NCBI GenBank assembly: GCA_030435675.1 | Contig: CM059623.1 | Span: 13,052,092-13,116,091, forward strand | Reading direction: 5' to 3' | DNA from: Steinernema hermaphroditum | Taxonomy: Eukaryota; Nematoda; Chromadorea; Rhabditida; Steinernematidae | Length of the DNA stretch: 64,000 nucleotides | Shown: piece by piece, positions 15,806 to 55,700 of the stretch | How the letters are laid out: each line of letters begins with the position of its first letter | Numbering within the stretch: the stretch's first letter is position 1 | Program-made: the position numbers and the translations under genes | The notes under the pieces: generated by a model | Seen by the model: the letters and a program-made list of their open reading frames with translations, nothing else | Databases searched by the model: none | Told to the model about the DNA's origin: nothing

Positions 15806-16843
15806 CTACTTGCACTTAGCGGCTCCTTTGGTGGTCTCGTCGATGTATTTACAATAGTGCGAAATTCGAGTGAAGACAGAAGGGATTTTGTCTTGGTCAT
15901 GCTCCATGGCGCGGTCGTTCGGAATTCCGAAAGATGTGATGCCGATTTGGACAAGACGGCCAGGACGCACGATGTAAAGCGGTCCTCCGCTATCACCCTA
16001 AAGAATATTGTAAGAAGTGTGTTTCTTGTAAGCGTCATATACAGGTCCGACTCCCTTGTTCTTAGCTCCAGCACAGAGTTGTTCGCTCTTTCTCAATTTC
16101 GTAGTGGCGAAAGACCAGGCTTTGCTATAATGAATTCCGTTTCAACAATGCCAGAGTCCCTACTGACCTGCAGAATTCGAAGGGGAACAGAGTGACATCG
16201 ATGGCCAGGAGGTTGCGGCTATGTTCGGTTTTCGTTGTTCCGTTCTTGTCCTTCACAACTGAACAGCGTCTTATAGAGAGATAGCAACGTTGTGGGCCTA
16301 CATTTGTAGGTTCCAAAGCCGGCGATCACCGCACGGCGTTCCTTCACGTACTCCTCGTCGTTCTTGTAGATATTGGCCAGCTTCACGTTGCGATTGAGAG
16401 ACACAGCCGGGCTGAACTCAAGGATCGCGATGTCGTTGAGGTATTTTCTGTCGTTGCTATACTGCTGGTGGATGTTGATCTTGGTGACTTTTCTCCACTG
16501 AGCGTTGGTGACATTCTGGATATGAATGGAGCCGACCATGATCATGACTTTGTCTTTCATGTGGACGGCGCAGTGAGCAGCAGTGAGGACGTGATTCTTC
16601 GAGATGAGGGTTCCTCCACAGGTGTTTGGTTTGCCCCTGCTATCAATGAATGCCGTAAGTGCTTGCATTGGAAGGTCCCCCTGCTTAACAGGTTTTCCTC
16701 CGAAAATCTAAAAGCACATATTGAGTATTCATCGGACTATCGGCGCTTACCAGCTCTGAGGGGCCGACGTTAAGGATGTCGTGGTCGATGGGAAGTGCGA
16801 GAGCTGAGCTAAGAAGGCACAGGAGCATAGGAAGAACACCCAT
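15806..16843 (-). CDS. Secreted S1 serine protease, complete catalytic triad
   Basis: Five exons (16843-16751, 16707-16302, 16258-16168, 16124-16043, 15997-15806) give 287 residues. The signal peptide is MGVLPMLLCLLSSALALP and the pro-region is short. Exon 2 starts the mature enzyme with IFGGK, preceded by Leu. The triad is His76 (LTAAHC), Asp123 (LNDIAIL) and Ser227 (codon 15991-15989, GDSGGP). The residue at position 189 is Gly. It is the only active member of the same-strand array at 15.8-26.6 kb; its closest paralogue, 22978-24000, has the nucleophile changed to Asn. TATA-like TTTTATA at 16883-16889 and TGATAA at 16928-16933 lie upstream. Confidence 0.92.
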
Positions 16844-16882
16844 GACTAGAGCTGGATGAGGGTTCGAGTTAGATCGCTCTCT

Positions 16883-16933
16883 TTTTATATATCGACATCT
16901 ACTGTAGTTCTTATTATTTGCCAACCATGATAA
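16883..16933 (-). promoter_or_regulatory. TATA-like box and GATA site of the 15806 protease
   Basis: TTTTATA at 16883-16889 (about 40 bp upstream of the ATG) and TGATAA followed by AAGTACACA at 16928-16933 and on. Confidence 0.5.
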
Positions 16934-17224
16934 AAGTACACACTTGATCATATCAATTAAAACTGTTGACTCAAAGATTTAAAATTTAAGCGACTAGTAC
17001 TTTATGTACACCATGTGTTCGATGTTCTTCGGTACACAGATACTCTTAGATAACATTTATCTGTTACAAGAAAACATGCCGTTTTATTATGTGATTGTTC
17101 GCACTTCTTATCGGTGACTTTAGTTCTCTGGGTGACGTTTTCGCTTCTGTTACATTATAGGCGACATGAGAGGGCGCCTACGGACAAAGGTCTAACACCG
17201 TAGAGGTGTAGGAACTCGTTGTAT

Positions 17225-17830
17225 TGGGTTGATCCATGAAAAATGGCCGATGACGTAAACATCCTTTAACTTTAAAATATTTACTCCAAGGCATAGTCGT
17301 CGACTCCAATTCTCAGCACTCACTATTATTAACCGCTTGTCCATTGCATTCCTCTACAGGTCTTGTCCATTGTAGATATTGGAGATTCATTCTGTTTTGA
17401 TAATGATTTTTCTGGAACCTCGACATTGCGGGTTTACTTTCGCATTCGGAGACCATCCGAATGCGAAAGACCGCTAAAGACATACTTCTTGTGTTTTCGT
17501 GGGTTTTCTTGGAACTACGGCTCCTTGGTGTTCCAGGCCTTCTGGGAGCCGGCGCGATCATTGAGTCAATAACGACGATCAGGAACGACCGCTCACTCAC
17601 TTCATCCGGCGAACCTAAGCGAGACATAGCCGTAGTTCCAACGTTTTGCCAAGAAGACCGTCACTGCCGCCCGACCACCGGCGCCGCTACATGAAGCAGA
17701 AATACAACCCACTGCGATCCCGAAGTCCGTGGCGCAAGCCGAACCGAAGATGATTCTTCACTCCGTACCCCATCACCGTGCTTCGACTGGATTCAGCCTC
17801 TTCGACTCTGCGATGTAAAACTAACGGATC
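17225..17830. repeat. R1 repeat copies in head-to-head arrangement
   Basis: A forward R1 segment (GAACTACGGCTCCTTGGTGT ... GCGATCATTGAGTC, about 17511-17560) is followed by an inverted R1 segment (ATAGCCGTAGTTCCAACG ... AGAAGACCGTCACTGCCGCC, about 17625-17680). The left part, TGATCCATGAAAAATGGCCG at about 17230, recurs at 36485 next to another R1 copy, so that word may belong to the same element. Confidence 0.6.
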
Positions 17831-18138: not shown

Positions 18139-19131
18139 TCACTTGCAGTTGGCCGCACCACCGGTAACGTTCTTGATCCATTTGCAATACCTCACAACGC
18201 TCGTGAAGACAAAATTCTTTTGTTCCTTCGGAGGGGGATAAGAGGCGACGCCAATCTGAATCAATCCACCAGCGCGGACGACAAAAAGAGGTCCACCATC
18301 ATCGCCCTAAATGGACGATTCAGACGACTTAGAAAGATCGTCGTGGAAGCTTACATCTTCAACTCCTCCTTTGTTTCCTTTGGCACACAACTGGTTGGCT
18401 GCGAACTTCTTATTGTAAGCTTTGCTGTAAATAATCATAAGAAGCGAAATATCAGAACCATTCACTACCTGCATTCGCTGGTTGGCGCGAAAAACAGTTG
18501 AGCGATTTTGAGATTTGGCGTGTGCCCGAATCCAGATACGACGACACTTGCTCCATTGGCGATACTAGAGATGTCACCAGCCAGCTGGACGATTCCAACA
18601 CTACGATCCTTTGGTTTGATGACCACCTCCTTTTCAAGCTCTACGATGGCGATGTCATTGTTGAGCGTGTTCTCGTTGAAATAAGGGTGGGCGATGATTT
18701 CCTTGACTTTTATGCGCTGACCATTTTCGACAATCTGGCTGTTCACCGATCCAACCAGGACCTGCACGTGTTGCTTCGCTTTGACGGCGCAATGAGCAGC
18801 AGTGAGAACATGCTTCTTCGAAATCAGAGAGCCTCCACACGACTCGGCTGGCCTTTGCTGTTGATGAACAAGAAGAGAGCATGATTGGGAACGTCTCCCG
18901 CCCGTGCAGCATGTCCTCCAGAAATCTAGGAAGTAAGAAAGTTCTCTGAATGTCTGTGGGTGGAATGCTCACAAATTCGGTGTCGGGCAGGTCAGCTTCA
19001 AGGGGATTGACAGTTGGACGAGAATGACGAGGATGGCGAGTGCGCCTGGGATGGCGAAAGTCGTCCTGCTCCTCGAAGGGAACGGCGACCGAAGAGGCGA
19101 TGAGAAGGAAGAGAAGGGGAAGAATACCCAT
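18139..19131 (-). pseudogene. S1 pseudoprotease gene (Ser to Asp), with a one-base frameshift
   Basis: Four exons are recognisable (19131-18973, 18925-18469, 18424-18355, 18306-18139). The leader is MGILPLLFLLIASSVAVPFE, followed by a pro-region FRHPRRTRHPRHSRPTVNPL that matches the repeat unit of the 28228 protein. Mature sequence would start ISGGH. In exon 2 one C is missing in the run encoding QPESCGG (about 18845-18848; CAGCCGAG instead of CAGCCCGAG in the paralogues), so exon 2 is 457 nt rather than 458 and the frame breaks. Downstream codons are otherwise well kept, with His in LTAAHC, Asp in NNDIAIV, and the nucleophile codon 18300-18298 encoding Asp (GDDGGP). The lesion is recent or an assembly error. 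Confidence 0.82.
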
Positions 19132-20914: not shown

Positions 20915-21885
20915 TCATTTGGACTCGTCGTCACCATCGATAACGTCTTTGATCCAGTTGGCATAGCGGTCGATTCTGGTAAAAACAAACTTGGTTTGGT
21001 CTTTCGGTGGAGGATAAGAGGCAATGCCAATCTGGATCAGTCCACCAGCGCGGACGACAAAAAGAGGTCCACCATCATCGCCCTAAATGGACGATTCAGA
21101 CGACTTAGAAAGATCGTCGTGGAAGCTTACATTTTCAACTCCTCCCTTGTTCCCGTTGGCACACTCCTGGTTGGTTGCGAAAGTCTTGTTGTACGCTTTG
21201 CTGTAAACACTCATAACAAGTGAAATGACAAAACGCTTCGCTACCTGCATTCACCGATGGGCGTCAGAAACAGTTGAGCGGTTTTGAGATTCGGAGTGCG
21301 CCCGAATCCAGATACGACGACACTGGCTCCATAAGCCAGACTAGAAGTTCCATTATCAAGCTGGACAATTCCAACGCTACGATCCTTCGGAGTGATGACC
21401 ACCTCCTTCTCAAGCTCGACGATGGCGATGTCATTATTGAGCGTTTCCTCGTCGTAAAAGGGGTGGTCGATAATTTCCTTGGCTTTTATGCGCTGACCAT
21501 TTTCGACAATCTGACTGTTCACCGATCCAACCAGGACCTGCACGTGTTGCTTCGCTTTGACGGCGCAATGAGCAGCAGTGAGAACATGCTTCTTCGAAAT
21601 CAGAGAGCCTCCACACGACTCGGGCTGGCCCTTACTGTTGACGAACAAGAAGAGAGCGTGATTGGGAACGTCTCCCGGCCGTGCAGCTTGTCCTCCAGAG
21701 ATCTAGGAAGTAGGGAAGCCTTCATAATGATCGTTGGATGGAATACTCACAAATTCTGCTTCAACTGGGTTTTCAGTAGAACGAGAACGGCGAGTGTGCC
21801 CTGAGTGGTGCAAGTCGTCCTGCTCCTCGAGGGGAACGGCGACCGAAGAGGCGACGAGAAGGAAGAGAAGAGGAAGAATACCCAT
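20915..21885 (-). CDS. Secreted S1 pseudoprotease, nucleophile Ser replaced by Asp
   Basis: Four exons (21885-21751, 21702-21245, 21200-21131, 21082-20915) give 276 residues. The signal peptide is MGILPLLFLLVASSVAVPLE, with a pro-region HHSGHTRRSRSTENP. Mature sequence starts ISGGQ after Phe. His90 (LTAAHC) and Asp136 (NNDIAIV) are kept, but the nucleophile position 224 (codon 21076-21074) is Asp, GDDGGP, so peptide hydrolysis by the normal mechanism is not possible. The two C-terminal cysteines found in all paralogues (RYC..W and ECK) are here Ala and Ser, lost together. No stops or frameshifts, so it is likely expressed. Its nearest paralogue is the inverted copy 49697-50664. Confidence 0.9.
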
Positions 21886-22977: not shown

Positions 22978-24000
22978 CTATTTGCACTTGGCGGCTCCCT
23001 TTGTTGTCTTTTCAATGTAACCACAATAGTGCGACACTCTGGTGAAGATCGCCGGGAAAGACTCTTGGCTTCCATGAGCGATGACATCCAACAGCGATCC
23101 GAAAGAAGTGATGCCGATCTGGACGAGACGGCCAGGTTTCATGACATAGAGGGGTCCGCCGTTATCTCCCTAAACAGCAATTTTCAGAATTCAACTTTCC
23201 AAGGGGTGAACATGCCGGTGCGACTCCTCTATGGTCACCTCCTGCGCAGACGTGTTCCTCTTTTTTCAGCTTCAGCGAGTGGAAATGCCAGGCACGACTA
23301 AAAAGGAAGTTTTTCTAAGAAGAATGCAAGCTCTTACCTGCAGTAGTTGAAAGGGAAGAGAGTGACATGAGCGGCCAGCAAATTGCGACTCTGCTCGGGA
23401 CCTGACTTAACATCTGAATTGAACATGAAATACATTGACATATCATCAAGTTCTACATTTGAAGGTGCCGAAGCCAGCAACCAGAGCGTTTCTTTCCTTC
23501 AAGTACTCCTCGTCGTTCTTGTAGACATTGGACAGCTGGACGTTGTGGTTGAGAGATACGGGCGAGCTAAACTCGAGGATCGCGATGTCGTTCTGGTAAT
23601 TCCCATCTTTGCTGTACTGATCATGAACATGGATCTTCGTGACCTTTTTCCATTGAGCATTTGTGACGTTCTGAATGTTAACCGATCCGACCATGATCAT
23701 GACCTTGTCTTTCATGTTGACTGCACAGTGAGCAGCAGTAAGGACGTGGTTCTTCGAGATGAGCGTGCCACCGCAGCTGCTCGTGTTACCCTTTTTGTCC
23801 ACGAAGGCGGCTAGGGCTTGCATCGGGATCTGACCTTGCTTGATTGGAAATCCTCCGATTATCTTAAAGTAAGCTTAGGGAAACATCGGTGAGTCAATGA
23901 CGCCTACTAGCTCTGAAGGGCCGACTTCAAAGACAGCGTCGTCGATGGGAAGCGCGAGGGCTGATCCAAGGAGGCAGAGAAGGATTGGAAGAACATCCAT
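22978..24000 (-). CDS. Secreted S1 pseudoprotease, nucleophile Ser replaced by Asn
   Basis: Five exons (24000-23908, 23862-23457, 23413-23338, 23297-23216, 23169-22978) give 282 residues. The signal peptide is MDVLPILLCLLGSALALP. Mature sequence begins IIGGF after Leu. His76 (LTAAHC) and Asp123 (QNDIAIL) are kept; the nucleophile codon 23163-23161 is AAC, Asn222, giving GDNGGP, one base away from the AGC used by the active paralogue at 15806. The fourth intron (23215-23170) begins GCATGT, a GC-AG intron, placed by alignment with that paralogue, where the same junction is GT. The rest of the frame is intact. A polyadenylation-like AATAAA is found just downstream. Confidence 0.87.
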
Positions 24001-25110: not shown

Positions 25111-25483
25111 CACAAGTCCTTCTTTCAGACCAACTGCACGTTGTGGAAGTTTGAAGTTTTGAAGGTTTGAATTGCACCTTCAATCCAGTTGAACAGTTGA
25201 ATATTGCAGAAGCGGACGAAGTCTGTTTGAAACGAACCCGTTTCACTGGAGGACTTAGAGCGTCGCTTTGCGGAAAATTTGTTCAAGTAGGGGATGGGAT
25301 AAATATGTTGACGATAACTACTCGTGTTGACGATGTTACTCTTGTGACCCACAGCGACTCACAGGTGTTTCGAGAACTTCATGTACATATGCTTGCATGA
25401 TTTACTGTTATAAATGTTGACCTTTACAAAAATATACAAATTTTTGGTGGACGAATTTGCAGTTTGCTCGAAGTCGGGCATTC

Positions 25484-26578
25484 TTACTTGCAGTTGGCTT
25501 CTTTGCCAGTCTTCTCGGCGATCCATTTGCAGTAGCGCGACACTCTGGTGAAGACGAGATCTGGTTCACCTTTGGGATCGTAGGGACCGCCGAAAGAAGC
25601 GATTCCAAGTTGAATCAAACCTCCAGGGCGAACGACAAACAGCGGTCCACCTCCGTCACCCTACAATTAAAAGTACTCACTAACTCTCAACAAAACCTAC
25701 AGGACCGGGAGCCGAACCCTTTCCTTTGGCACAAATTTGGTTGTCGTTGAACTTCAGCTTGAAGGCTTTGCTAAAGTAAATTACAAGAACTAGAGCAATG
25801 TGTTCATAGTCTTACGTGCAAACTTCATTTTCGACAATTTTGACTTCTGCAGCGCGGAGCACAGGGCTGGGCACGGGCTTCTTTGCTTCATATGAAAATC
25901 AGTTTACATCTTATATGTGCAAAAGGGAATACCGTCGTGAGCTCCAAACCCGGAGATAACAGCGCGGGCGTTCTTTTCCAACTTAGAGTCGTCCAAGTTC
26001 AGCTGGACGATCCTCACGTTTTTGTTAATTTCCGCGTCCTTCTCTAGCTGCAGGATGGCAATATCGTTGTCGAACTTGTCCTTGCCCTTTCCGAAGTTGG
26101 GGTGGATTATGAACTTCGTTACGTTTCTGGGCTGGTGGGTCTTGCGGTCGTGAACGTCCACAACTCCTAGAATGACGACAGCAGACTTGATGTGAAGAGC
26201 ACAAGCGGCAGCAGTGAGGACGTGTTTCTTGGAGATGAGGCTTCCTCCGCACAAGAAGCGATGACCCTGTTTGGCCTTAGCAAGGATCAACGCCTGGATG
26301 GGAATATCACCGACTCTGGCCGGCTTTCCACCAAAGATCTAAACTTTTATAATGCATCCTAGTAAACACCATAGAAGGCGACTTACAAATTCACTTTTAG
26401 GGAAGAGTTGTTCAAATTCGGTTATTTCGAGTTCTTCTTCCATCTCGATTGGGCTTCGTGTAGGAGGAGAACGACGAGGATGGCGAGTGTGCCATGGCCA
26501 GTGCAAGTCGTCCTGCTCCTCGAGGGGAACGGCGACCGAAGAGGCGACGAGAAGGAAGAGAAGAGGTAGAATACCCAT
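25484..26578 (-). CDS. Secreted S1 pseudoprotease, His to Ala and Ser to Gly
   Basis: Five exons (26578-26387, 26338-25933, 25885-25816, 25770-25701, 25660-25484) give 304 residues. The signal peptide MGILPLLFLLVASSVAVPLE is followed by the longest pro-region in the cluster (WHTRHPRRSPPTRSPIEM, then acidic). Mature sequence starts IFGGK after Phe. The catalytic His codon is GCT, Ala109 (LTAAAC; 26206-26204). Asp156 (FDNDIAI) is kept. The nucleophile is Gly249 (codon 25654-25652, GDGGGP). Two triad residues are gone, yet the frame, splice sites and disulfide cysteines are intact. Its duplicate is 37742-38840. Could bind ligands or inhibitors rather than cut; this is inference. Confidence 0.9.
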
Positions 26579-26618
26579 CGCTGGTAATGGATGCATCTTC
26601 CTGGCTTAATACATACTC

Positions 26619-26667
26619 TTTTATACCCCAGTGAACGCTGGGTCGATGCTATTTCTGATATTGATAA
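26619..26667 (-). promoter_or_regulatory. TATA-like box and GATA site of the 25484 gene
   Basis: TTTTATA at 26619-26625 and TTGATAAGAG (TGATAA at 26662-26667). The arrangement is kept in the duplicate upstream of 38840. Confidence 0.5.
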
Positions 26668-26849
26668 GAGATCGGCTCAAGTGTACTCTTTGTTTTCCGT
26701 TCTTGATAATCATGAGCTTTTACAGTAAGATCAAGAGTTGTTGAGTTGTCCTTATTCCGCTCTACCCATAGGACATTTACACTTCTGATGTAAAAATTGC
26801 TTACGTCGTCATGTGATCAACAAGTGGAAAATGTAAACACTCTTTCGCT

Positions 26850-27200
26850 CTTTTTAGATGATCTGCTTTAGGCAAAGTTTTCTTCAGCGAGCGCTTCGCG
26901 CTCTCTGCGAAAAAGCACATTTCCGCTTCGCCCATCCTCAGCTGGCGATGCATAACCAAAGCGACACAGTCGCTTTATTCAGTTCAAACCGCAACATGCT
27001 TCTACACTGGTTTATCTCGAAAACACTCAGAGGAAAACACACATGGTGAATCATTCTAATTACGAAACTATTGGCTTGGAGCAGTGAAAGTGGGACACTT
27101 TTACACTTATTGTTTATTTGCTTTTTTTTAACCATTTCACTTCAAGGTATTCACTGGACAACTACAGACCACTTCGCGGGCAAAAGCCAGATCTTTCGTT
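26850..27200. other. Intergenic, nothing recognised
   Basis: No gene seen; contains a short AGCGCTTCGCGCTCTCTGC palindrome-like word near 26891. Confidence 0.35.
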
Positions 27201-28227: not shown

Positions 28228-29385
28228 TTAGAGCGAGAGAATCGGTTCCTTCTGTTGGACGGGACTGTGAGTGGGACGAGAGTGGCGAGGATGGTGAGTA
28301 CGTCGAGAGTGGTGGAACTCAGCGCCTTCGGCAAGAGACTCTTCGCTAGGCCCACGAGTGCGACGAGAATGACGAGGATAGCGAGTGGGGTGCGAGCGAT
28401 GCAAGTCACTCTCTTCGACCGGCGACTTATTCAGGTTATCCAAAGGGCTGCGAGTAGGCCGCGAGTGATGGGGATGACGGGTGTGTCGGGAGTGGCGGTG
28501 GAGCTCGGCTTCTTCGGGGCTGAATGTGGGTCTAGAATGCCGAGGAGGTCGCGATGGTCGGGAGTGGCGATGCAGTTCCTCTCCTTCAGCAACGGCAACT
28601 TCTTCAGGGCTTCTGGTACGGCGAGAGTGATGAGGCGGCCGGGTACCGCGAGTGTGACGAAGCTCATTTTCCTGAGCCAAAGATTCATCGATCGGGCTAC
28701 GTGTAGGTCGTGAATGATGAGGATGCCGTGTGTGTCGGGAATGATTACGGTGGTGGTGGAAATCGTTTTCCTCAACGGCAGCAGCTTCTTCGGGGCCACG
28801 AGTAGGCCGGCTATGATGAGGGGGGCGAGTATGACGAGGAGGGTGCGTAGGTCGAGAACGATGCAGGTCGTCTTGTTCGACATCCGACTCCACTTCCGAT
28901 AGAGGACTATGTGTAGGCCGGCTATGATGAGGATGGCGAGTATGTCGCGAATGGTTACGATGATGATGGAAGTCTTGTTCCTCGACCAGAGACTCTTCGA
29001 TGGGGCTGCGAGTGCGGCGAGGAGGTGGAGTAGGTCGGGAACGACGCAACTCATCTTCTTCCACAACCGCGGCCTCTTCAGGGCTGCGAGTGCGACGAGA
29101 GTGATGGGGAGGGCGGGTTCCGCGAGAGTGACGGAAGTCCTTCTGCTCCATAACAGCTTCTCCTACCTAAATTATATGCTTCTACGAAGGAAAAAAGCAG
29201 CAAAAACTTACGGATTCGCCAACAGCAGGAGCTACGTTCTCTTGAACAGCTGAAGCATCAAGCGGGTTGCGAGTAGGCCAAACAGGGGGAGGAGTTCGTC
29301 GGCTATGCCGAAAGGCATCTTGCTCCTCAGGAGGCAAGGCAATCGCCGAAGCGACCAAAAGGAAGAGAAAAGGAAGAACACCCAT
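28228..29385 (-). CDS. Secreted His/Arg/Ser/Pro tandem-repeat protein
   Basis: Two exons (29385-29212 and 29166-28228) give 370 residues. The signal peptide is MGVLPFLFLLVASAIALPPE, related to the pseudoprotease leaders. Exon 1 holds one repeat; exon 2 holds about ten more of 24-36 residues. A typical unit is an acidic start (VEEQDFHH) followed by HSRHTRHPHHSRPTRSPIEE. The protein is extremely rich in His, Arg, Ser, Thr and Pro, with almost no hydrophobic residues after the leader and no cysteines. The unit closely resembles the pro-region of the pseudoproteases (DDFRHPRRTRHPRHSRPT in the 18139 gene), so it probably arose by amplification of that exon. Possible roles are metal binding, polycation binding or a peptide precursor; none is proven. 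A near-identical copy is at 40128-41285. Confidence 0.9.
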
Positions 29386-30036: not shown

Positions 30037-31026
30037 ATGTGTACACTACCAGTGCTATTTCTATTGGCATCTGCTGCCTACGTTGCACCTGTGCAGTTCG
30101 GCGATGGATTGGATGCCGCTGAATTTGTGAGGATGAGTATAGATGAGTGATATCAAGTATGAAACGTTCAGATCTTCGGAGGCAAGCCTGTGAACGCTGG
30201 AGAAATTCCCATGCTGGCGGTGATCCTGTTCAAAGATATCAATGGGAAACCCGACAGCTGTGGAGGTTCTCTGATCTCGAAGACACACGTGCTCACCGCC
30301 GCCCACTGTGCTCTTGAAATGAAGTCCAACATTACCGTCGTCGTTGGGGTGGTTAATATCCACAACCTGGCCGGAGCCCAGTTCAGAAATGTCAGCAGGA
30401 TTGTTGTTCATCCTCATTACAAGAACGACACCTCGCTGAACCATGACATTGCCATCCTTGAAGTCGAGAACGCCGTAACACTTAATGCCAATGTTCGACT
30501 GGCGGTGCTTACCAAAAGCGACGACACATATGGGAACGGCAAGCAGGCTGTCATCGCCGGTTTTGGAACATACAAATGTAAAAGTCTACACTTCCCTATC
30601 TCACAATCTCTTCTTTAGTGGCAGGAAAGCATAGTCTTCGTAGTCCCCATTTACTTTCAAGCAATGTAACCACTCTAAAAACAGCTGCATGCAAGTAAGT
30701 TCCAGAATGCTTATCTACACGACTCATTTTCAACTTCAGAAGCATATTGAAAAAGAAATTTAACGAGGACATTATGTGTGCTGAAGCCATGGCAAGAAGC
30801 TTAGGAGATGTAAGTAATCCTCCAAACAAGATTCGCTGATGCTTTTCAGGGAGATGATGGAGGTCCTGTCTTCGTTGTCCGTCCTGGACGTCTTATCCAA
30901 ATCGGTATTGCATCAGATGCGGAGTCATTCAAACCACAAGGGCAAAACAGGATCGTGTTTACAAGAATTTCTCGCTACTGCGGCTATATCAGTGACGTGA
31001 CAGATGGAGAAGCGACTTGCCAATGA
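30037..31026 (+). CDS. Secreted S1 pseudoprotease, nucleophile Ser replaced by Asp
   Basis: Five exons (30037-30126, 30172-30577, 30619-30694, 30740-30809, 30850-31026) give 272 residues. The start is set by the signal peptide MCTLPVLFLLASAAYVAPVQ, with the shortest pro-region in the cluster (GDGLDAAEF). Mature sequence starts IFGGK after Phe. His75 (LTAAHC) and Asp122 (NHDIAIL) are kept; the nucleophile codon 30856-30858 is GAT, Asp217, giving GDDGGP. C-terminal cysteines are present (RYCGYI, ATCQ). It lies 650 bp from the His/Arg repeat gene, divergently transcribed, and converges on the discoidin-like gene. A broken duplicate is at 41918-42603. Confidence 0.9.
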
Positions 31027-37741: not shown

Positions 37742-38840
37742 CTACTTGCAGTTGGCTTCTTTGCCAGTCTTTTCGGCGATCCATTTGCAGTAGCGCGACA
37801 CTCTGGTGAAGACGAGCTCCGGTTCACCTTTGGGATCGTAGGGACCGCCGAAAGAAGCGATTCCAAGTTGAATCAGACCTCCGTCGTGATTGACAAAAAG
37901 CGGTCCACCTCCGTCACCCTACAATTAAAAGTACTCATTTACTCGCAGGGAAACCTACAGGCCCAGGAGCGGAACCCTTTCCTTTGGCGCAAATTTGGTT
38001 GTCGTTGAACTTCAGCTCGAAGGCTTTGCTAAAGTAGATTACATGAACTAAAGCAATGTGTTTATAGTCTTACGTGCAAACTTCATTTTCGACAATTTTG
38101 ACTTCACCAGCGCGGAGCACAGGACTGAGCCCGTGCTTCTTTTCTTCAAATGGGAAACAATTTACATCTTTCATGAGTGCAAAAGGGAATACCGTCGAAA
38201 ACTCCAAACCCGGAGACAACAGCGCGAGCGTTCTTTTCCAACTTAGAGTCGTCCAAGCTCAGCTGTACGATCCTGACGTTTTTGTTAATTTCTACGTCCT
38301 TCTCTAGTTGCAGGATGGCAATATCGTTGTCAAATTTGTCCTTGCTCTTCCCGAAATCGGGGTGGATGATGATCTTCGTTGCTCTTCTGGACTGTTGCGT
38401 ATTATGGTCCTTAAGGTCCGCCGCTCCTAGAATGACGACAGCAGACTTGACGTGAAGACCACAATAGGCTGCAGTGAGCACGTGCTTCTTGGAGATGAGG
38501 CTTCCTCCGCAGTAAAAGCGATGTCCCTCTTTGGCCTTAGCAACGATTAACGCCTGGATGGGAATGTCACCGGCTTTTGCTGGCTTTCCACCAAAGATCT
38601 AAACTTTTATAATGCATCCTAATGTAAGCGCCATAGAAGGCGACTTACAAATTCACTTTTAGGGAAGAGTTGTTCAAATTCGGTCATTTCGAGTTCTTTT
38701 TCCATCTCGATTGGGCTTCGTGTAGGAGGAGAACGGCGAGGATGGCGAGTGTGCCATGGCCGGTGCAAGTCGTCCTGCTCCTGGAGGGGCACGGCGACCG
38801 AAGAGACGATGAGAAGGAAGAGAAGAGGTAAAATACCCAT
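37742..38840 (-). CDS. Secreted S1 pseudoprotease, His to Tyr and Ser to Gly
   Basis: Duplicate of the 25484 gene with identical exon lengths (38840-38649, 38598-38193, 38143-38074, 38028-37959, 37918-37742; 304 residues). The signal peptide is MGILPLLFLLIVSSVAVPLQ. The catalytic His is TAT, Tyr109 (LTAAYC; 38466-38464), a different change from the Ala in copy A. Asp156 is kept and the nucleophile is Gly249 (37912-37910). Downstream of it VVRPGG of copy A is VNHDGG. Frame and splice sites are intact despite many amino-acid changes, including two independent fates of the His codon, which suggests that the fold but not catalysis is under selection (inference). Confidence 0.9.
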
Positions 38841-40127: not shown

Positions 40128-41285
40128 TTAGAGCGAGGGAATCGGTTCCTTCTGTTCAACGGGACTCTGAGTGGGACGAGAGTGGCGAGGATGGCGAGTA
40201 CGTCGAGAGTGGTGGAACTCAGCGCCTTCGGCAAGAGACTCTTCGCTAGGCCCACGAGTGCGACGAGAATGACGAGGATAGCGAGTGGGGTGCGAGCGAT
40301 GCAAGTCACTCTCTTCGACCGGCGACTTATTCAGGTTATCCAAAAGGCTGCGAGTAGGCCGCGAGTGATGGGGATGACGGGTGTGTCGGGAGTGGCGGTG
40401 GAGCTCGGCTTCTTCGGGGCTGAATGTGGGTCTAGAATGCCGAGGAGGTCGCGATGGTCGGGAGTGGCGATGCAGTTCCTCTCCTTCAGCAACGGCAACT
40501 TCTTCAGGGCTTCTGGTACGGCGAGAGTGATGAGGCGGCCGGGTACCGCGAGTGTGACGAAGCTCATTTTCCTGAGCCAAAGATTCATCGATCGGGCTAC
40601 GTGTAGGTCGTGAATGATGAGGATGCCGTGTGTGTCGGGAATGATTACGGTGGTGGTGGAAATCGTTTTCCTCAACGGCAGCAGCTTCTTCGGGGCCACG
40701 AGTAGGCCGGCTATGATGAGGGGGGCGAGTATGACGAGGAGGGTGCGTAGGTCGAGAACGATGCAGGTCGTCTTGTTCGACATCCGACTCCACTTCCGAT
40801 TGAGGACTATGTGTAGGCCGGCTATGATGAGGATGGCGAGTATGTCGCGAATGGTTACGATGATGATGGAAGTCTTGTTCCTCGACCAGAGACTCTTCGA
40901 TGGGGCTGCGAGTGCGGCGAGGAGGTGGAGTAGGTCGGGAACGACGCAACTCATCTTCTTCCACAACCGCGGCCTCTTCAGGGCTGCGAGTGCGACGAGA
41001 GTGATGGGGAGGGCGGGTTCCGCGAGAGTGACGGAAGTCCTTCTGCTCCATAACAGCTTCTCCTACCTAAATTATATGCTTCTACGAAGGAAAAAAGCAG
41101 CAAAAACTTACGGATTCGCCAACAGCAGGAGCTACGTTCTCTTGAACAGCTGAAGCATCAAGCGGGTTGCGAGTAGGCCAAACAGGGGGAGGAGTTCGTC
41201 GGCTATGCCGAAAGGCATCTTGCTCCTCAGGAGGCAAGGCAATCGCCGAAGCGACCAAAAGGAAGAGAAAAGGAAGAACACCCAT
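40128..41285 (-). CDS. Secreted His/Arg/Ser/Pro tandem-repeat protein, second copy
   Basis: Two exons (41285-41112 and 41066-40128), 370 residues, nearly identical to the 28228-29385 gene (offset 11900 with no indels). Only a handful of residue changes are seen, for example THHPRHSRPTHSP to TRHPRHSRPTQSP near the C-terminus, SPLS to SPQS, and SPLDN to SLLDN. Leader, repeat number and splice sites are unchanged. The absence of indels across a highly repetitive 1.1 kb exon shows that the duplication is young or the copies are being homogenised. Confidence 0.9.
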
Positions 41286-41917: not shown

Positions 41918-42603
41918 ATGTGTACACTACCAGTGCTATTTCTATTGGCATCTGCTGCCTACGTTGCACCTGTGCAGTTCGGCGATGGATTGGATGCCGC
42001 TGAATTTGTGAGGATGAGTATAGATGAGTGATATCAAGTATGAAACGTTCAGATATTCGGAGGCAAGCCTGTGAACGCTGGAGAAATTCCCATGCTGGCG
42101 GCGATCCTGTTCAAAGATATCGATGGGAAACCCGACAGCTGTGGAGGTTCTCTGATCTCGAAGACACACGTCCTTAGCGCCGCCCACTGTGCTCTTGAAA
42201 TGAAGTCTAACATTACTGTTATCGTTGGAGTGGTTAATATCCACAACCTCATCGGAGCGTAGTTGACATTGACATTGCCATCCTTGAAGTCGAGAACGCC
42301 GTAACACTTAATGCCAATGTTCGACTGGCGGTGCTTACCAAAAGCGACGACACATATGGGAACGGCAAGCAGGCTGTCATCGCCGGTTTTGGAACATACA
42401 AATGTAAAAGTCTACACTTCCCTATCTCACAATCTCTTCTTTAGTGGCAGGAAAGCATAGTCTTCGTAGTCCCCATTTACTTTCAAGCAATGTAACCACT
42501 CTAAAAACAGCTGCGTGCAAGTAAGTTTCAGAATGCTTATCTACACGACTCATTTTCAACTTCAGAAGCATATTGAAAAAGAAATTTAACGGGGACATAA
42601 TGT
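41918..42603 (+). pseudogene. Broken copy of the 30037 pseudoprotease
   Basis: Exon 1 (41918-42007, same leader MCTLPVLFLLASAAYVAPVQ) and the start of exon 2 (from 42053) are intact, with His in LSAAHC. A net 55-bp deletion at about 42258 removes the segment before the catalytic Asp and creates a TAG at 42260-42262. Exon 3 (about 42445-42520) and part of exon 4 remain. Homology stops near 42603, so the nucleophile exon is gone. Non-functional. Confidence 0.88.
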
Positions 42604-44680: not shown

Positions 44681-45775
44681 TTACATTGCTAGAGGCCTTA
44701 CTCCTACACCGAGTACGCTAAGCCATCCCTCAAATACAGGTACCTTTTGCATGTGACCATACGACATAAGTGCTCGGAACTTGACTGTCTGAATATCCCG
44801 GTTCGGAAGGTTCAAACGCTATGGTAGTGCCGTGAGGAATTAGTGTGAAATCGTGTTTTCCTGTGGCAGTTTTCTTGAGTATGTAAAACACGCACTCACT
44901 TACCTGCACCTCGTTGTACTCCACGTTGGACTAACACACTCACTGGCAACATCTCTCCAGCCAAATTTGTTACTTCAATACCGTACCTCCGTAAACGGCC
45001 CCGGAGAAAGCTCCAGGTTTTCCTTTGCCATCGTCCCCAGTCAAACCATATCCAGAAACTATCCGCGGCACTAACTGCTGAATCACTGCTTTCAACCACT
45101 TTTATGAAGCCTTCAGTGGTAAAAGTTACTTTGCTATGGAAATCGATGGGGTGATTCACGCAAGCAACGCTGAGTCCTGTAGAAGTGATTTAAAGCTGTT
45201 TGAGATTTTCTTACCTTCATCTTCCACGAGAATGCTTACGTAGACAGTGAATCCAAATTCGGGAACCGGAAGCCGCTTGGTTTCGTCCCGACGGACGGAA
45301 ACAAATCGCTGACCAGCGGCAATTTTTGAATCTGCGAAGATGGACAATACCAAGGAGACTATATCGTACACAAACCTGCATTTGGACTAACCAGTTCCTT
45401 TCTGATAAGCTCTCGATGCGAGCTGCATCGCACCCAGATAGACTTTTGAAATTCGTTGCGAACAGAAACTGCTGCAAGGCTGCGAAATTGCCAGTGATAA
45501 GTTCTGAGAAAATGAAGAGATGTGATTAGCGAGAGAAGAAGTGTTGCTGCGATGCCAAGTTCTCCGTAGTAATCGTAAATAATGTCTGGCAAATCGGGAA
45601 AAAAGGTCAACAATAATTGCAGTGACATGTGCTCTCCGCAATACTTCTTTCCTAAAGAAAGCAGGGAAGTGGACAAAATCAATACCTTGGCTCTTATCAT
45701 ATACGCAGCACTGCTGATAAAGAACTCTGTTGCAACCACTAACAAGGAGAGGTCCAGTGTCCCACGCGGATTCGG
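44681..45775 (-). CDS. Unidentified multi-exon protein, second copy, 5' end unresolved
   Basis: Counterpart of 34581-35687. The first recognised exon is 45775-45376 (400 nt as in copy A); downstream acceptors and donors are all conserved (for example TTCTACAG before the exon beginning near 45170, and CACCTGCAC donors). The stop is at 44681-44683. Differences are mainly substitutions (GTHLIRANV versus AAYMIRAKV; WARWQRK versus WGRWQRK), plus a diverged intron near 45180. Conservation of the reading frame between copies supports a protein-coding gene. Two hydrophobic segments followed by a beta-rich region; family unknown. Confidence 0.62.
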
Positions 45776-46076
45776 CTGAAATTTGGCGGGAAGATAGACA
45801 TGGCAGAGTGTAGCAAAGCCTGATAGGGTTCATCGGTGAATGGCGTGTTTAAGCTGTATATTGCATAGTTGATTATGCCCTCTGCAATTGTAAGATCTCC
45901 TAGCGCGATATCCCTGATGTCACAAAAGAGTGTGATGATTTTGTCAGTTGTCTTTTCTTGCCATTTATTTGAGGTTTTGCGAGGCCATTCACCGATGAAA
46001 CCCATCAGGTTTTGCTGCACTCTGGTATGCCAACCCAAATTTCAGCCGAATCAGCGTGGGTCAGTTTGTGAACTAC

Positions 46077-49696: not shown

Positions 49697-50664
49697 ATGG
49701 GTATTCTTCCCCTTCTCTTCCTTCTCGTCGCCTCTTCGGTCGCCGTTCCCCTCGAGGAGCAGGACGACTTGCACCACTCAGAGTACACTCGCCGTTCTCG
49801 TTCTACTGAAAACCCAGTTGAAGCAGAATTTGTGAGTATTCCCTCCAAAGAGTATTTCAAAGGCTTTCTTACTTCCTAGATTTCTGGAGGACAAGCTGCA
49901 AGGCCGGGAGACGTTCCCAATCATGCTCTCTTCTTGTTCATCAACAGCGAGGGCCAGCCCGAGTCGTGTGGAGGCTCTCTGATTTCGAAGAAGCATGTTC
50001 TCACTGCTGCTCATTGCGCCGTCAAAGCGAAGCAACACGTTCAGGTCCTGGTTGGATCGGTGAACAGCCAGATTGTCGAAAATGGTCAGCGCATAAAAGT
50101 CAAGGAAATCATCGACCACCCTTATTACGATGAGGACACGCTCAATAATGACATCGCCATCGTCGAGCTTGAAAAGGAGGTGGTCATGAAGCCGAAGGAT
50201 CGTAGTGTTGGAATCGTCCAGCTGGCTCGTGACACCTCTAGTGTGACCAACGGAGCCAGCGTCGTCGTATCTGGATTTGGACGCACTCCGAATCTGAAAA
50301 CCGCTCAACTGTTTTTGACGCCCACCGATGAATGCAGGTAGCGACGAGTTTTCTCATTCCACTTCTTATGATTGTCTACAGCAAAGCGTACAACAAGACT
50401 TTCGCAACCAACCAGGAGTGTGCCAAAGGAAACAAGGGAGGAGTTGAAGATGTAAGCTTCCACGACGATCACTTTCAGACTAAATCGTGTATTTAGGGCG
50501 ATGATGGTGGACCTCTTTTTGTCGTCCGCGCTGGTGGACTAATCCAGATTGGCGTCGCCTCTTATCCTCCTCCGAAGGGACAAAACAACTTTGTCTTTAC
50601 CAGAATCGACCGCTACTGCAATTGGATCCAAGTGGTTACCGATGGTATCGCCGAGTGCAAGTAA
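49697..50664 (+). CDS. Secreted S1 pseudoprotease, nucleophile Ser replaced by Asp
   Basis: Four exons (49697-49831, 49880-50337, 50382-50451, 50497-50664) give 276 residues, an inverted duplicate of 20915-21885. The signal peptide is MGILPLLFLLVASSVAVPLE, with a pro-region HHSEYTRRSRSTENP. Mature sequence begins ISGGQ after Phe. His90 and Asp136 are present; the nucleophile codon 50503-50505 is GAT, Asp224 (GDDGGP). Unlike its sister it retains both C-terminal cysteines (RYCNWI, AECK), so it represents the ancestral disulfide state. The segment before the nucleophile (KGNKGGVED) lacks the usual Cys191. AATAAA lies about 90 bp after the stop. Confidence 0.92.
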
Positions 50665-51546: not shown

Positions 51547-52557
51547 TCAGGACGATGCGACACTGGCAACGTTGACTTTCCATCCTCTCAATCGAAAAAT
51601 ACTCCTCAGCTCGCGGTTGTATAAAGTGCTCCGGAAGTAGTAAATAAAAAACGGAGCCACCATAGTGATGTTCCATAAGATGATAACTGTATTTTGAACG
51701 GCCACAGAGAAAAGATGGCTGAAACGTGCAAAATAAGTATCTGGTCTTGAACTGTTTAACTTTACCAAGGATGAAAAAGCGATACGGCGAGTGTAAAGAC
51801 TATAGGCAACAGCCACGCCGAGATATGAAGCAAAATCATTAGGTTAAGGGATCGATTTATTTTGATGTATTCCGGAACTGCCACTGAAATATATTGTTTT
51901 TCCATTGGATCAAAGAGTAACGTACCCTTAGTAAGTCTAGTCAAAGCGACATACGTTACCACAACAGCTGCGTTGATGGTCGTATTTCCAACAGCCCAAA
52001 CAGTGATATTGGAAGAAGCTAGAACGTCTACGATGGTACAAAAGATCGTGTCGTTGTTCAATGCAGTGTAGCGATAAACTGCGAAAGCAGATGAGAAAGT
52101 AAGGCAAGACAGCAGAATGCCGGTTACATATTTCCAGCCCTTCATGCACTGATATTTGAGGGGGTATTTGGTTGCGGCGAATCTGTCGACTGCTATGAAC
52201 AGCATCAGGAGTGTAGAGAAGTCCATGGCCAGCATACTGACTAACTGAATGAAGTAGCATTGGTGTACTGTGGTCATGTTCTCATTGAAGGAGTTGTAGA
52301 TGAGTGTAACGGAATGCCATTGTCTGATGATATCTGAGAGTGCTTGAGCCGCAATGAGAACGTTGCATGATGATTGTAGGGACTTGGATCTGAAATTTAT
52401 GTTATTTGTTTGCTCAATTTTATGCCCACCTAATGGTAACCAAGATAATGAGTCCATTTCCAACACTTGCAACGGCACCTTCGAACAGTAGTATCAGTGA
52501 ATCAACTCTTACTACGAGAAAAAATGTCGAAAGGGTCATGTTGTTGGTGAGTGACAT
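51547..52557 (-). CDS. Srsx-like seven-transmembrane chemoreceptor
   Basis: Four exons (52557-52430, 52389-51926, 51883-51766, 51718-51547) give 293 residues. Visible are TM1 (LLFEGAVASVGNGLIILVTI, with the GN motif), TM2 (LIAAQALSDIIRQ), a loop Cys before TM3 (HQCYFIQLVSMLAMDFSTLL), the DRF motif at the end of TM3 (MLFIAVDRFAATKYPLKY), TM4 to TM6 (INRSLNLMILLHISAWLLPI), and TM7 (IILWNITMVAPFFIYYFRS). This is the nematode srsx-type rhodopsin-like pattern; I place it there by motif, not by a search. The intron at 51925-51884 is easily missed because it reads through in frame. Likely an odorant or pheromone receptor at the cell membrane. Paralogous to 57022-58038. Confidence 0.87.
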
Positions 52558-52839: not shown

Positions 52840-53060
52840 GCGAGACTGACCACTGGGCACGAGGATAAGCCCTGGATCAGGATAGGATGGCGGGGGACGA
52901 GATGAGGCATGGACTAAGGGTAGGATAAGGGTGTGTGGAGGACGAGACCGGAGAAACTATGGGGCACAGAATAAAGTATGAACCAGGCACATAAGGAAAA
53001 ACCATTAAGCGTTAAGCAACCTAGACGTGCAGGCTGCCGTAGGCAAACTGAGTGGTTAGT
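52840..53060. repeat. Degenerate purine-rich repeat, partner of 2190-2640
   Basis: G/A-rich imperfect repeats (GGATAGGATGGCGGGGGACG, ACTAAGGGTAGGATAAGG) followed by AAGCAACCTAGACG, as at 2.2-2.64 kb. Confidence 0.5.
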
Positions 53061-53069
53061 CGTAGTACT

Positions 53070-53970
53070 AATAGAAAGGACAAAGAATGCATCCTGGGTC
53101 TCAGAAACTATAGAACACTGTAGGGTGCTGTAAGACCTTAATCACCGGCAAACCTATAGCGACTAGAAGTTTACTATTGCCACGTGAAACACTAATCTCT
53201 CTACAGCTCCAAAGTTCACCACCGCCAGCCGAACCAATAAATGGAGTCGGTTTTGGTTGTCGTAATACATCAACAGCTTTGTTCGCCACTTCGAAGCCCA
53301 CGTATGTGAAAGCAAATGAATAGAACAGAACCGATTTTCCCATGGACCGACGATAAGACAAGAAAAAAGAAAAAACATATATCAGCTACACCCATAATAA
53401 TACAAAGGGCAATTTTTGTATTTAACCGCAACGACGTAGATACAAAACTTTTTCACATCTAACATCGTGGACACGCCCTATGCGTCTTACACTTAATACA
53501 TGCCAAAAGGTAAGACATGGATTGTATTCCTCTGTTTTTATGTATTCACTTCTATGTTCAGTCCTTCCGTATAAGCATTATAATCGTTCACCATTTGTCC
53601 TATGGTGTTTGTTCTTAATGAGGAAATTTTAGAGACAATACTTGCGCATCAAGACTAGAGCTAATAAAACCATTGTTATTCAAGTCATACTCGTGTTCAT
53701 AATTTGAAAGCACACATTCTTTCCGTCGTCTGAAATCGACAAAACAAAATATTTTTAAAAATACACACAACCAATGCAGAACAAAAGAATGTCTCATCAT
53801 ACAGGCCAATGCAAAATGCAGCTTGACGTCCATGGGACGATGATGTCCGCGTGTCCTAATTCGGTTTCTTAGTGTCCCAAATTGCTCTGCTACCTTGTTT
53901 TAGTGAAATATTTATACAGATATTAGTATTTTTTTCTGTGATGCAATGCAAATAATCGAAGAGCATGAAT
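53070..53970. other. Intergenic, nothing recognised
   Basis: No gene or defined repeat seen. Confidence 0.4.
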
Positions 53971-53980
53971 TTACATGAAA

Positions 53981-55700
53981 TTACTGGCACTTGGCTGCTC
54001 CTTCGGTGACTTCATTGATGTAGTCGCAGTAATGAGAGACTCTGGTGAACACCGAAGAAATCTCATGTTGTTCCGTAACATTCGCAGTATAGGAACTAAT
54101 ACCAATCTGCACGAGATTCGCCGAATGCAATACGTGGATAGGCCCTCCTCTGTCTTTCTAAACTATAACACCGTAACATGTTGTAGTCCAGCGAATATTC
54201 TAAACACTTTAGCGAACTTTGATTCCTTCAATTTTTCTTCTTTTTGTTCTGAACTTTACATATAATTTAAAATATGAAATTTGGCAACGTTTTCATCTCG
54301 ACGATAAGTACTGTCGCGTGGGTTGGTTTGTGAGAACTTACTTTTGTAATTCAACCTGTTTCCTTCGTGCCGGAAAAAAAACATGTCTTAGCAATACGCT
54401 CATACCAGTGGGATTTCGAAGTCTCGCGAGTCCCAGTTTCGTATTTCGTAGCGAGACTTTTAATTTGGTCTCAGTTTGCATGGCTCTGATCTGAATCCGA
54501 ACGGACACGAACTGCCGCCCACTGAACTGATTCTTCGAACTTCACTACACACAAATGAAGGATCCACTAAAATGGCGATCGTCGAGTTCGCTGATGCCAG
54601 TATACAGGGTGTAAGGCACCCAAAAAGGCACCTTAGACGTGACTAGCAAAAGTATAGGAGACGTATCAGAAATTCAAACCCTTCACCTTCAATTGCGGTA
54701 TTGCGGCACGATCAATTTTCTTTACCGTATTTAGCCACACGCTATATATCTGCCTATTTATAGTGGTATATGCAGCAGATGTCGAAAAATTTAGCACAAA
54801 ATCTACAAAGTGCATGAAAATGTTTTTAAAAATTCGCAACAAAATAATAAGTTTGAGTGCACTTGGGACAACCTTAGTACACCCTATAACTTACGGGTCC
54901 GATTCCAGTGCCTTTGGCACCTGCACAAAATTGTTGTCCTTCTTCGAGACGTCCATTCAAGACCTTGCTAAGAACACACACGACGTGTGAATGTAGAAGT
55001 GGTCGAACTTACTTGCAGTACTCAAAAGGGAAAATAGTAACGTTTGCAGCGACTAGAAGTTTACTATGCTCTGAAGATCCAGGTTCATCTGTAAACAGAA
55101 ATGCACTGCTTATGTAGTGGTTATATCATCTTACAACTTCCAAAACCAGAAACAATCGCGGTTTTGTGTTTGAAATACTCGGAATCGATTCTGTAGATAT
55201 TGGACAATTTGATGTTCCGGGTTAGGGAAACAGCAATGTCAAGTTCAAGAATTGCAATGTCGTTGTAATAATTCTCATCGTTGCTGAATTGTGGGTGAAT
55301 CGTGATCTTCCTGACCTTCCGCACTTCAGCATGTTTCAGGTAGTTAATGTTCACTGCTCCCACGACTACAGTAGCTTCTTCAATTCTCGTCGCGCATTGA
55401 GCAGAAGTAAGAACATGTCTCGTCGAAATAAGGCTGCCTCCACAGTCACCGGTCTCATTGCGGCTATCACTATAAACTATTAAAGCTTGATAGGGAATAT
55501 CACCCAGCTTCACTGGTTGTCCTCTAATGACCTACAATTCATTGTTTGGTCAATAAATGGCAAATAAAACATCATACAAGCACATTTGGAGGTCTTCTAT
55601 GCTCTGCTTTCCCACGGTCAAGAATACGATCGCCTATGACCACAAAAGGGTAAGCGAAAACGCACAGGACAAGGCAAATCACTAGCGAAAGAAAAACCAT
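53981..55700 (-). CDS. Secreted S1 pseudoprotease, His to Gln and Ser to Arg
   Basis: Five exons (55700-55578, 55531-55135, 55088-55013, 54967-54895, 54157-53981) give 281 residues. The start is chosen at the signal peptide MVFLSLVICLVLCVFAYPFV. Mature sequence begins VIRGQ rather than I-x-G-G. Triad: the His position is Gln86 (LTSAQC; 55399-55397), Asp132 (YNDIAIL) is kept, and the nucleophile is Arg226 (codon 54151-54149) in KDRGGP, where the oxyanion-hole Gly is also Lys. Exon phases and the C-terminal cysteines (HYCDYI, AKCQ) are conserved. The last intron is about 740 bp, far longer than the usual 45, and may hold an insertion. It is the most derived family member and sits between two chemoreceptor genes. 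Confidence 0.85.

What the first reader, a model, noticed from the sequence alone, without database searches (positions are those of the whole stretch)
15806..55700. A gene cluster of secreted pseudoproteases with different substitutions of the same catalytic residue
Eight S1-family genes that look expressible, or nearly so, have lost the nucleophile Ser: Asp in the 18139, 20915, 30037 and 49697 genes, Asn in 22978, Gly in 25484 and 37742, Arg in 53981. Their leader, activation junction, splice sites and core cysteines are kept, apart from the frameshift in 18139 and the C-terminal cysteine loss in 20915. Three active relatives (2918, 9078, 15806) sit in the same cluster. Repeated inactivation with preserved frames suggests a selected non-catalytic role such as decoy, inhibitor sink, adaptor or ligand binder. 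Non-catalytic serine protease homologues are known from arthropod immunity (clip-domain SPHs); a gut-type nematode cluster dominated by them is unusual as far as I know.
Basis: partly seen in the sequence, partly recalled or inferred. Interest (0 to 1): 0.93.

Follow-up and report, generated by a model that had tools for sequence, protein, structure and literature searches.

The report
Conserved dead proteases in Steinernema nematode
An insect-killing nematode carries, in one gene cluster, a family of secreted digestive-type enzymes whose active site is destroyed but whose proteins still seem to be kept intact by natural selection, which suggests that they now work as binding proteins rather than as enzymes.

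Summary
The eight genes are real S1A (chymotrypsin-family) genes of Steinernema hermaphroditum, an insect-killing nematode, and all eight have lost Ser195 as stated. Corrections: three also lost His57; one has a broken frame; one needs a GC splice donor. The cluster continues 23 kb upstream, where eight of nine genes are active-type, so dead genes do not dominate. Inactivation was not eight events: six dead genes form one well-supported clade (one ancestral loss, then divergence to Asp or Gly); the Asn gene is a separate loss, the Arg gene probably one (not shown), and a broken upstream Asp copy another. Inside the dead clade dN/dS is 0.24 against 0.14 elsewhere, and neutrality is rejected; intron divergence makes the case weaker for one pair. 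These look like constrained pseudoproteases, not pseudogenes. Residue 16, Asp194, core cysteines and fold are kept, while the substrate cleft has lost its extra conservation and, in the Asp lineages, its binding strand is altered. I favour non-catalytic binding outside the cleft over an active-site decoy. Side finding: a propeptide module of the dead sub-clade recurs as tandem copies in orphan genes next door. Expression and function are untested.

The parts
1..188 (+). last exon of an active S1A gene (U9) that begins upstream of the window
   Evidence: GDSGGP kept
614..1308 (+). decayed S1A fragment (in-frame stops) of the active type
2918..4034 (+). active S1A protease gene G1 (5 exons), H57-D102-S195 kept
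8018..8198 (-). C-terminal fragment of an active-type S1A gene, frame broken
9078..10145 (-). active S1A protease gene G2 (public model QR680_014499, differs from mine at the start and one junction residue)
15806..16843 (-). active S1A protease gene G3 (QR680_014503), 5 exons
18139..19131 (-). dead S1A gene G4 (QR680_014504): S195D, frame broken in exon 2; two public isoforms splice round the break
20915..21885 (-). dead S1A gene G5 (QR680_014505): S195D, H57 and D102 kept, two C-terminal cysteines lost
22978..24000 (-). dead S1A gene G6 (QR680_014506): S195N; last intron needs a GC donor (23215) or another splice
25484..26578 (-). dead S1A gene G7 (QR680_014507): H57A and S195G, frame intact
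28228..29385 (-). orphan two-exon gene HSR1: signal peptide plus tandem copies of a His/Arg/Pro-rich module also seen in leaders of dead proteases; reading frame not proven
30037..31026 (+). dead S1A gene G8: S195D, H57 and D102 kept; deepest branch of the dead clade
37742..38840 (-). dead S1A gene G9: H57Y and S195G, frame intact; duplicate of G7
40128..41285 (-). HSR2, recent duplicate of HSR1
41918..42602 (+). truncated, broken recent duplicate of G8
49697..50664 (+). dead S1A gene G11 (QR680_014514): S195D, H57 and D102 kept, frame intact
53981..55700 (-). dead S1A gene G12: H57Q, G193K, S195R, frame intact

Best explanation
A tandem array of secreted chymotrypsin/elastase-like protease genes in Steinernema hermaphroditum gave rise to pseudoproteases more than once (shown by the tree). 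One loss was followed by duplication and divergence into six genes that differ at position 195 (Asp, Gly). After the loss these proteins stayed under purifying selection (shown by codon models, weaker by introns for one pair), so the protein product matters. They keep a leader, the hydrophobic activation junction, residue 16 and Asp194 (shown), so they can probably still be cleaved and switch to the mature conformation (inferred). They have lost the extra conservation of the substrate cleft but not of the rest of the fold (shown, with my own cleft definition). I infer that they act as non-catalytic binding proteins through surfaces outside the cleft, in the worm's gut lumen or in its secretions in the insect: cofactors or adaptors for the active paralogues, or partners or mimics of host serine-protease homologues.
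For: Open frames in 7 of 8, with the GC-donor caveat for 22978. Tree: dead clade 100/99, G6 with active U7/G3; all eight as one clade rejected p 0.004 and, with corrected trimming, 0.006; G6 plus dead clade rejected p 0.012. Codon model (20 genes, 224 codons, 18139 left out): background 0.142, dead clade 0.236, dead=1 rejected p 1e-35; G5+G11 tips 0.29 (p 1e-5), G7+G9 tips 0.30 (p 6e-6). Pairwise G5/G11 0.30-0.36 and G7/G9 0.37-0.53. TATA box 38-47 bases before the ATG in 7 of 8 dead genes; TGATAA sites 14 seen against 4 expected upstream of nine dead-type copies. Cleft identity among dead lineages 0.56 against 0.75 among active, rest 0.43 against 0.47. AlphaFold2 gives a chymotrypsin fold for G11, mean pLDDT 87.
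Against: No expression data. With introns as yardstick the G7/G9 case is weaker: intron distance 0.114 against dN 0.08-0.09. Absence of stops alone is not decisive (chance 0.11 and 0.07). Selection is somewhat relaxed compared with active genes. Related copies are broken (G4, U5, the copy at 41918) and 22978 has a weakened splice donor. No relative of the dead clade from another species stood among the best 120 hits, so conservation across species is untested.
Confidence: 0.55

Rival explanations
1. Inhibitor sink: dead copies soak up host or self serine-protease inhibitors by binding them in the substrate cleft and so spare the active paralogues.
For: Active relatives lie in the same array with shared promoter features. 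G6 keeps His57 and the strand 214-216 of its active sister 15806; G7 and G9 keep Gly216. Protease inhibitor families are expanded in Steinernema (PMC4578762, passage).
Against: The cleft has lost its extra conservation. In G5/G11 residue 216 is Pro and Asp sits at 195; G8 has Asp215 and Ala216; G12 has Lys193 and Arg195. Such changes should hinder substrate-like binding (inference from known S1 structure, recalled).
Confidence: 0.2
2. Simple decay: the genes are young pseudogenes on their way out and the low dN/dS reflects time before loss.
For: G4, U5 and the 41918 copy are broken; G6 has a weakened splice donor; G7/G9 intron distance is low.
Against: G5/G11 and G7/G9 share the changed residue 195 and so most simply split after the loss, yet show dN/dS 0.3-0.5 and an excess of silent changes (p 1e-4 and 1e-3); the dead clade rejects dN/dS=1; 7 of 8 frames are open.
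Confidence: 0.12
3. Carrier of the propeptide: in the sub-clade of G4, G7 and G9 (perhaps also G5 and G11, whose leaders are similar by eye) the important product is the His/Arg/Pro-rich propeptide module, and the dead protease domain only folds and exports it.
For: In this genome the module was found only in this cluster: in two stand-alone repeat genes and in the leaders of G4, G7 and G9 (13 matches); the stand-alone genes share the leader sequence.
Against: G8, G6 and G12 lack the module; the protease domain itself is constrained (the codon model used mature-domain columns only); exon 2 of the two repeat genes differs by 6 replacement codons and 1 silent codon, no sign of constraint.
Confidence: 0.08
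4. The Asp195 forms are enzymes of another kind (His57-Asp102-Asp195 as a new active site or metal site).
For: His57 and Asp102 are kept in all three Asp195 genes with open frames (G5, G8, G11).
Against: No precedent known to me; the binding strand is altered; the 50 listed structure matches of G11 are ordinary S1 folds.
Confidence: 0.03

Closest known systems
Insect single-domain serine protease homologues (SPHs), e.g. of Tenebrio molitor
   Same: S1A domain, signal peptide, triad residue replaced, alongside active relatives; 102 of Tenebrio's SPHs have no regulatory domain, and Gly or Asn at 195 and Gln at 57 are common there (PMC11172050, abstract and passages)
   Different: Nematode; hydrophobic activation junction instead of a presumed tryptic one; Asp at 195, in Tenebrio in the class of 1-4 cases, is the commonest state here; His/Arg/Pro propeptide module
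Arthropod clip-domain and masquerade-like SPHs
   Same: Secreted, Ser195 lost with the rest of the fold kept; a Steinernema Kunitz protein (Sc-KU-4) binds such host SPHs (PMC3787073, passages)
   Different: No clip domain in the 5 proteins scanned here; no evidence of a role in melanisation
Steinernema secreted S1A proteases (venom trypsins; Sc-SP-1, Sc-SP-3)
   Same: Same family and genus; 41 of 114 S. carpocapsae trypsin-domain proteins are in its venom (PMC5398726, passage)
   Different: Those I could align keep the triad: 42 of 42 Steinernema S1 proteins outside this cluster among the best 120 hits
Inactive S1 genes of Schistosoma mansoni
   Same: A parasitic worm with S1 genes lacking the catalytic Ser or His (PMC3967958, passage)
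   Different: Flatworm, few genes; I saw passages only and no test of constraint in them
Vertebrate dead S1 proteins (azurocidin, haptoglobin, protein Z; recalled)
   Same: Loss of His57 and/or Ser195 with retained fold and a binding role
   Different: Separate origin; no shared extra features tested

Membership tests
Peptidase family S1A (Pfam Trypsin, PF00089) | Matches the Trypsin profile over the whole domain | tested here: met
   5 of 5 dead proteins scanned (G11, G7, G8, G12, public G6), 106.7-149 bits against a cut-off of 20.6
Peptidase family S1A (Pfam Trypsin, PF00089) | Chymotrypsin fold | tested here: met
   AlphaFold2 of G11, pLDDT 87; the 50 listed PDB matches are S1; only G11 modelled
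Active S1A peptidase | His57-Asp102-Ser195 | tested here: not met
   Ser195 lost in 8 of 8, His57 also in 3 of 8
Serine protease homologue (pseudoprotease) | S1 domain with at least one triad residue replaced | tested here: met
Serine protease homologue (pseudoprotease) | Maintained as a protein after the loss | tested here: met
   dN/dS 0.24 in the dead clade, =1 rejected; weaker by introns for G7/G9; G4 has a broken frame; no expression data
Serine protease homologue (pseudoprotease) | No peptidase activity | not testable with these tools
   needs purified protein
Clip-domain SPH | N-terminal clip domain | tested here: not met
   Only trypsin-type domains in 5 of 5 scanned
Pseudogene | Disabled frame or neutral evolution | tested here: not met
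   7 of 8 frames open, neutrality rejected; the feature is met by the frames of G4, U5 and the 41918 copy
Steinernema venom protein | Detected in secretions of activated infective juveniles | not tested
   no proteome of S. hermaphroditum at hand

The most novel reading that the evidence does not exclude
A nematode parasite of insects evolved its own set of serine-protease homologues that act in the insect as mimics or partners of the host's SPHs, and the propeptide module of one sub-clade has broken free and been amplified into a stand-alone secreted repeat protein for which no relative elsewhere was found.
Probability: 0.2. Interest if true: 0.8.

Novelty: new variant of a known kind. Interest (0 to 1): 0.52.

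Why it matters
Dead serine proteases are best known from arthropod immunity and vertebrate blood. Here is a nematode array in which live and dead copies stand side by side, several of the losses can be placed on a tree, and selection after the loss can be measured. S. hermaphroditum is a self-fertilising laboratory worm (recalled), so gene removal could show whether the dead proteins matter inside the worm or during insect infection. It also warns that counts of trypsin-domain proteins in Steinernema secretomes may include proteins that cannot cut.

Tried and rejected
Apparent frameshift in 25484 and odd exon 1 introns in 25484/37742: artefacts of my first templates; solved by inspection, the public model and translation of exon 1. 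The GT alternative for the last intron of 22978 is what the public model uses. One clade of all eight dead genes: rejected. A separate loss in 53981: not shown; joined with the dead clade it is not rejected (p 0.40). Absence of stops as proof of selection: too weak. A further dead S1 gene elsewhere: the Asn-type motif at C3:2146074 lies near listed S1 matches, but I did not model it. The two Asp-type and eight Gly-type motif sites outside the cluster lie near no S1 match listed (a capped list) and are taken as chance; the scans miss genes that changed Gly193 as 53981 did. Literature: searches for inactive S1 proteins in Steinernema or nematodes listed no paper whose title or abstract start points to this cluster, and no paper holds 'QR680'; two searches showed 12 of 22 and 12 of 3,495 papers, and subscription papers are not covered.

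Slips put right: A125 and A126 are really public genes QR680_014452 and QR680_014277 (named rightly); the '214' and '216' columns are one off, corrected, and its residue-201 column is not meaningful; in the tree several rows were trimmed at the wrong place (U4, U6, G12 and public rows), so I rebuilt it (37 rows; P0189 left out as a long branch), with the same dead clade but 53981 no longer placed.

Gene models broken in frame (18139, upstream U5, 41918, the fragments at 614 and 8018) were left out of all dN/dS and codon analyses; 18139 entered the trees only as part of its public protein model P0003.
Full report
What and where. The window is C3:13052092-13116091 of a 90.6 Mb genome. The protein of the 49697 gene is identical to QR680_014514 of Steinernema hermaphroditum, on a contig of the same length as C3, so the species is an insect-killing nematode. 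The genome has at least 159 matches to the trypsin profile (a lower bound), and the cluster runs from about 23.5 kb upstream of the window to 55.7 kb inside it. Public models agree with mine for 15806 and for the dead genes 20915, 25484 and 49697, and nearly for 9078; 22978 differs at its last junction and 18139 has two isoforms that splice round its break. For 2918, 30037, 37742 and 53981 I saw no public model in the lists.

The genes. I wrote a splice-aware protein-to-DNA aligner and modelled 18 genes with open frames. Eleven keep His57-Asp102-Ser195: U1, U2, U3, U4, U6, U7, U8, U9 (upstream), 2918, 9078, 15806; the leaders of U6 and U8 are not resolved. Seven do not: 20915, 30037 and 49697 (Asp195), 22978 (Asn195), 25484 (Ala57, Gly195), 37742 (Tyr57, Gly195), 53981 (Gln57, Lys193, Arg195). 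18139 (Asp195) and one upstream gene, U5 (Asp195), have broken frames; 41918 is a truncated duplicate of 30037. All seven keep Ile/Val16, Asp102, Asp194 and Cys42, 58, 168, 182, and a Phe or Leu before residue 16; for 22978 this holds with a GC donor, not with the public splice. At codon 195 the eleven active genes have AGC or AGT; the dead ones have GAT (two steps away), AAC, GGA or AGA. Unless two bases changed at once, the Asp state passed through Asn or Gly, both inactive.

How special is the cluster. Of 44 public nematode S1 proteins outside the cluster that I aligned (24 other S. hermaphroditum, 11 S. glaseri, 7 S. carpocapsae, 1 Necator, 1 Panagrellus; picked from the 120 best rows, with insects, vertebrates and one Trichinella row left out), 44 of 44 keep the triad. 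Exact motif scans of the genome found 100 Ser sites, 13 of them in the cluster (two in fragments), and 19 Asp, Asn or Gly sites, 8 of them in the cluster; of the other 11, one (Asn, C3:2146074) lies near S1 matches listed, the rest do not. Not every Ser site was checked to be a gene. Fisher p is 4e-6, or 0.002 if four losses here are set against one elsewhere (the fourth, 53981, is not firmly separate). The scans miss genes like 53981 with a changed Gly193.

History. In the protein trees (38 rows; 37 rows with corrected trimming) six dead genes, 30037, 25484, 37742, 18139, 20915 and 49697, form one clade (support 100/99 in both). 22978 groups with active U7 and 15806 (100/96 and 99/96); joining it with the dead clade is rejected (p-AU 0.012). 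Holding all eight together is rejected (p-AU 0.0039 and 0.0061). 53981 is not firmly placed: beside active genes elsewhere on the chromosome with weak support (84/68, 74/52), and its union with the dead clade is not rejected (p 0.40). The open last exon of U5 is closest to active U4, 70% over 63 residues. So I count two firm losses among the eight genes, a third likely (53981), and another in U5. The array is dynamic: pieces of 25.3-36.0 kb recur at 37.6-46.1 kb at 85-95% identity, and 20.8-22.2 kb is an inverted copy of 49.4-50.8 kb, 87%.

Selection. Pairs that share the changed residue 195: 20915/49697 dN/dS 0.30, 0.36, 0.34 and 25484/37742 0.37, 0.53, 0.43 (Nei-Gojobori, Yang-Nielsen, likelihood); active pairs 2918/U9 0.20, 0.28, 0.26 and 15806/U7 0.18, 0.21, 0.20. 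A codon likelihood model that I wrote (20 genes, 224 gap-free mature codons, tree fixed, 18139 left out) gives 0.159 for one ratio, and 0.142 for the background against 0.236 inside the dead clade (better than one ratio, p 6e-4). dN/dS=1 for the dead clade is rejected (p 1e-35), also for the youngest tips alone (0.29, p 1e-5; 0.30, p 6e-6). The branches to 22978 and 53981 show 0.15 and 0.12, but include time before the loss, and the placement of 53981 in that tree has 45% support. The stem of the dead clade shows 0.44. Against this: the introns of 25484/37742 differ by only 0.114 (180 aligned bases), so by that yardstick constraint there is weak; for 20915/49697 it is 0.200 (137 bases). A neutral simulation gives the excess of silent changes p 1e-4 and 1e-3, but an absence of stops p 0.11 and 0.07.

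Can they be made. A TATAAA-type box lies 38-49 bases before the modelled start in 7 of 8 dead genes (not in 30037) and in 6 of 10 active genes examined (U6 was not). TGATAA, in Caenorhabditis the site of gut GATA factors (recalled), occurs 14 times in the 500 bases before nine dead-type copies (4.0 expected) and 13 times before ten active genes (4.4 expected); duplicated promoters are not independent. This is compatible with gut expression of both kinds but does not show it. No expression data were available.

How it may work. The predicted fold of the 49697 protein is that of chymotrypsin (pLDDT 87; best matches include duodenase, factor Xa, cathepsin G and chymase). With my list of 21 cleft columns, mean identity between three dead lineages (49697, 37742, 30037) is 0.56 in the cleft against 0.75 between seven active lineages; in the other 203 columns it is 0.43 against 0.47. 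So the fold is held about as firmly as in active genes while the cleft has lost its extra constraint. In the Asp lineages the strand that receives substrate is changed too (Pro216, or Asp215-Ala216), and Pro225, present in the 13 active rows aligned, is lost throughout the dead clade (numbering mine). I therefore favour binding by other surfaces, with the zymogen switch still in place, over a substrate-like decoy. The decoy remains open for 22978 and, less so, for 25484/37742. Whether the partner is the active paralogues, a gut ligand or insect plasma proteins is inference. The setting makes the last plausible: 41 of 114 trypsin-domain proteins of S. carpocapsae are in its venom (PMC5398726, passages), S01A proteases are expanded in the genus (PMC4578762, passages), and the worm's Sc-KU-4 binds host serine-protease homologues with Gly at 195 (PMC3787073, passages).

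The propeptide module. The leaders of 18139, 25484 and 37742 carry a His/Arg/Pro-rich stretch. In the genome search it was found only here: in those leaders and in two neighbouring genes made of a matching signal peptide and tandem copies of the stretch (28228-29385 and 40128-41285). In the protein database search only four proteins matched, all public models of these two genes (only the 7,986 candidates sharing most words were scored). Those models switch to another frame after the leader or the first modules, so the reading frame needs proof. Exon 2 of the two copies differs by 6 replacement codons and 1 silent codon.

Known or new. Dead S1 proteins are a known kind: Tenebrio alone has 125, 102 without regulatory domains, with Gly and Asn at 195 and Gln at 57 common and Asp rare (PMC11172050, abstract and passages), and Schistosoma has a few (PMC3967958, passage). 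My searches listed no report of such proteins in Steinernema (listings). New here, as far as I could see, are a constrained dead clade in an insect-killing nematode, Asp as the main state, and the module that also forms a separate gene. I call it a new variant of a known kind.

Noticed in passing
28228-29385 and 40128-41285 (-): Orphan secreted repeat genes built from a module also seen in leaders of the neighbouring dead proteases; public models QR680_014508 and QR680_014511 switch frame after the leader or first modules.
   Followed up: partly
32546-33487 (-): Open frame with a weak F5/8 type C (discoidin) match below the Pfam cut-off, near the duplicated block; similar-looking frames at 31118-32302 (one part scanned, no match) and 43088-43636 (not scanned).
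   Followed up: no
25313-35989 and 37575-46076: Recent tandem block duplication in three aligned pieces, 85-95% identical; one of its protease copies (41918) is already broken.
   Followed up: partly
C3:2146074 (L038): A further S1-like site with Asn for Ser195 outside the cluster; gene not modelled.
   Followed up: partly
51762-52493 and 57358-57900 (-): Srsx-type chemoreceptor genes, one between the last two dead proteases and one beyond the cluster's right end.
   Followed up: no
214-588 (+): Reverse transcriptase fragment (RVT_1), perhaps from a LINE-type element.
   Followed up: no
upstream of the window, C3:13039887-13040981 (U5): S1 gene with Asp195 and a broken frame, closest to active U4: a separate loss in another branch of the array.
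   Followed up: partly
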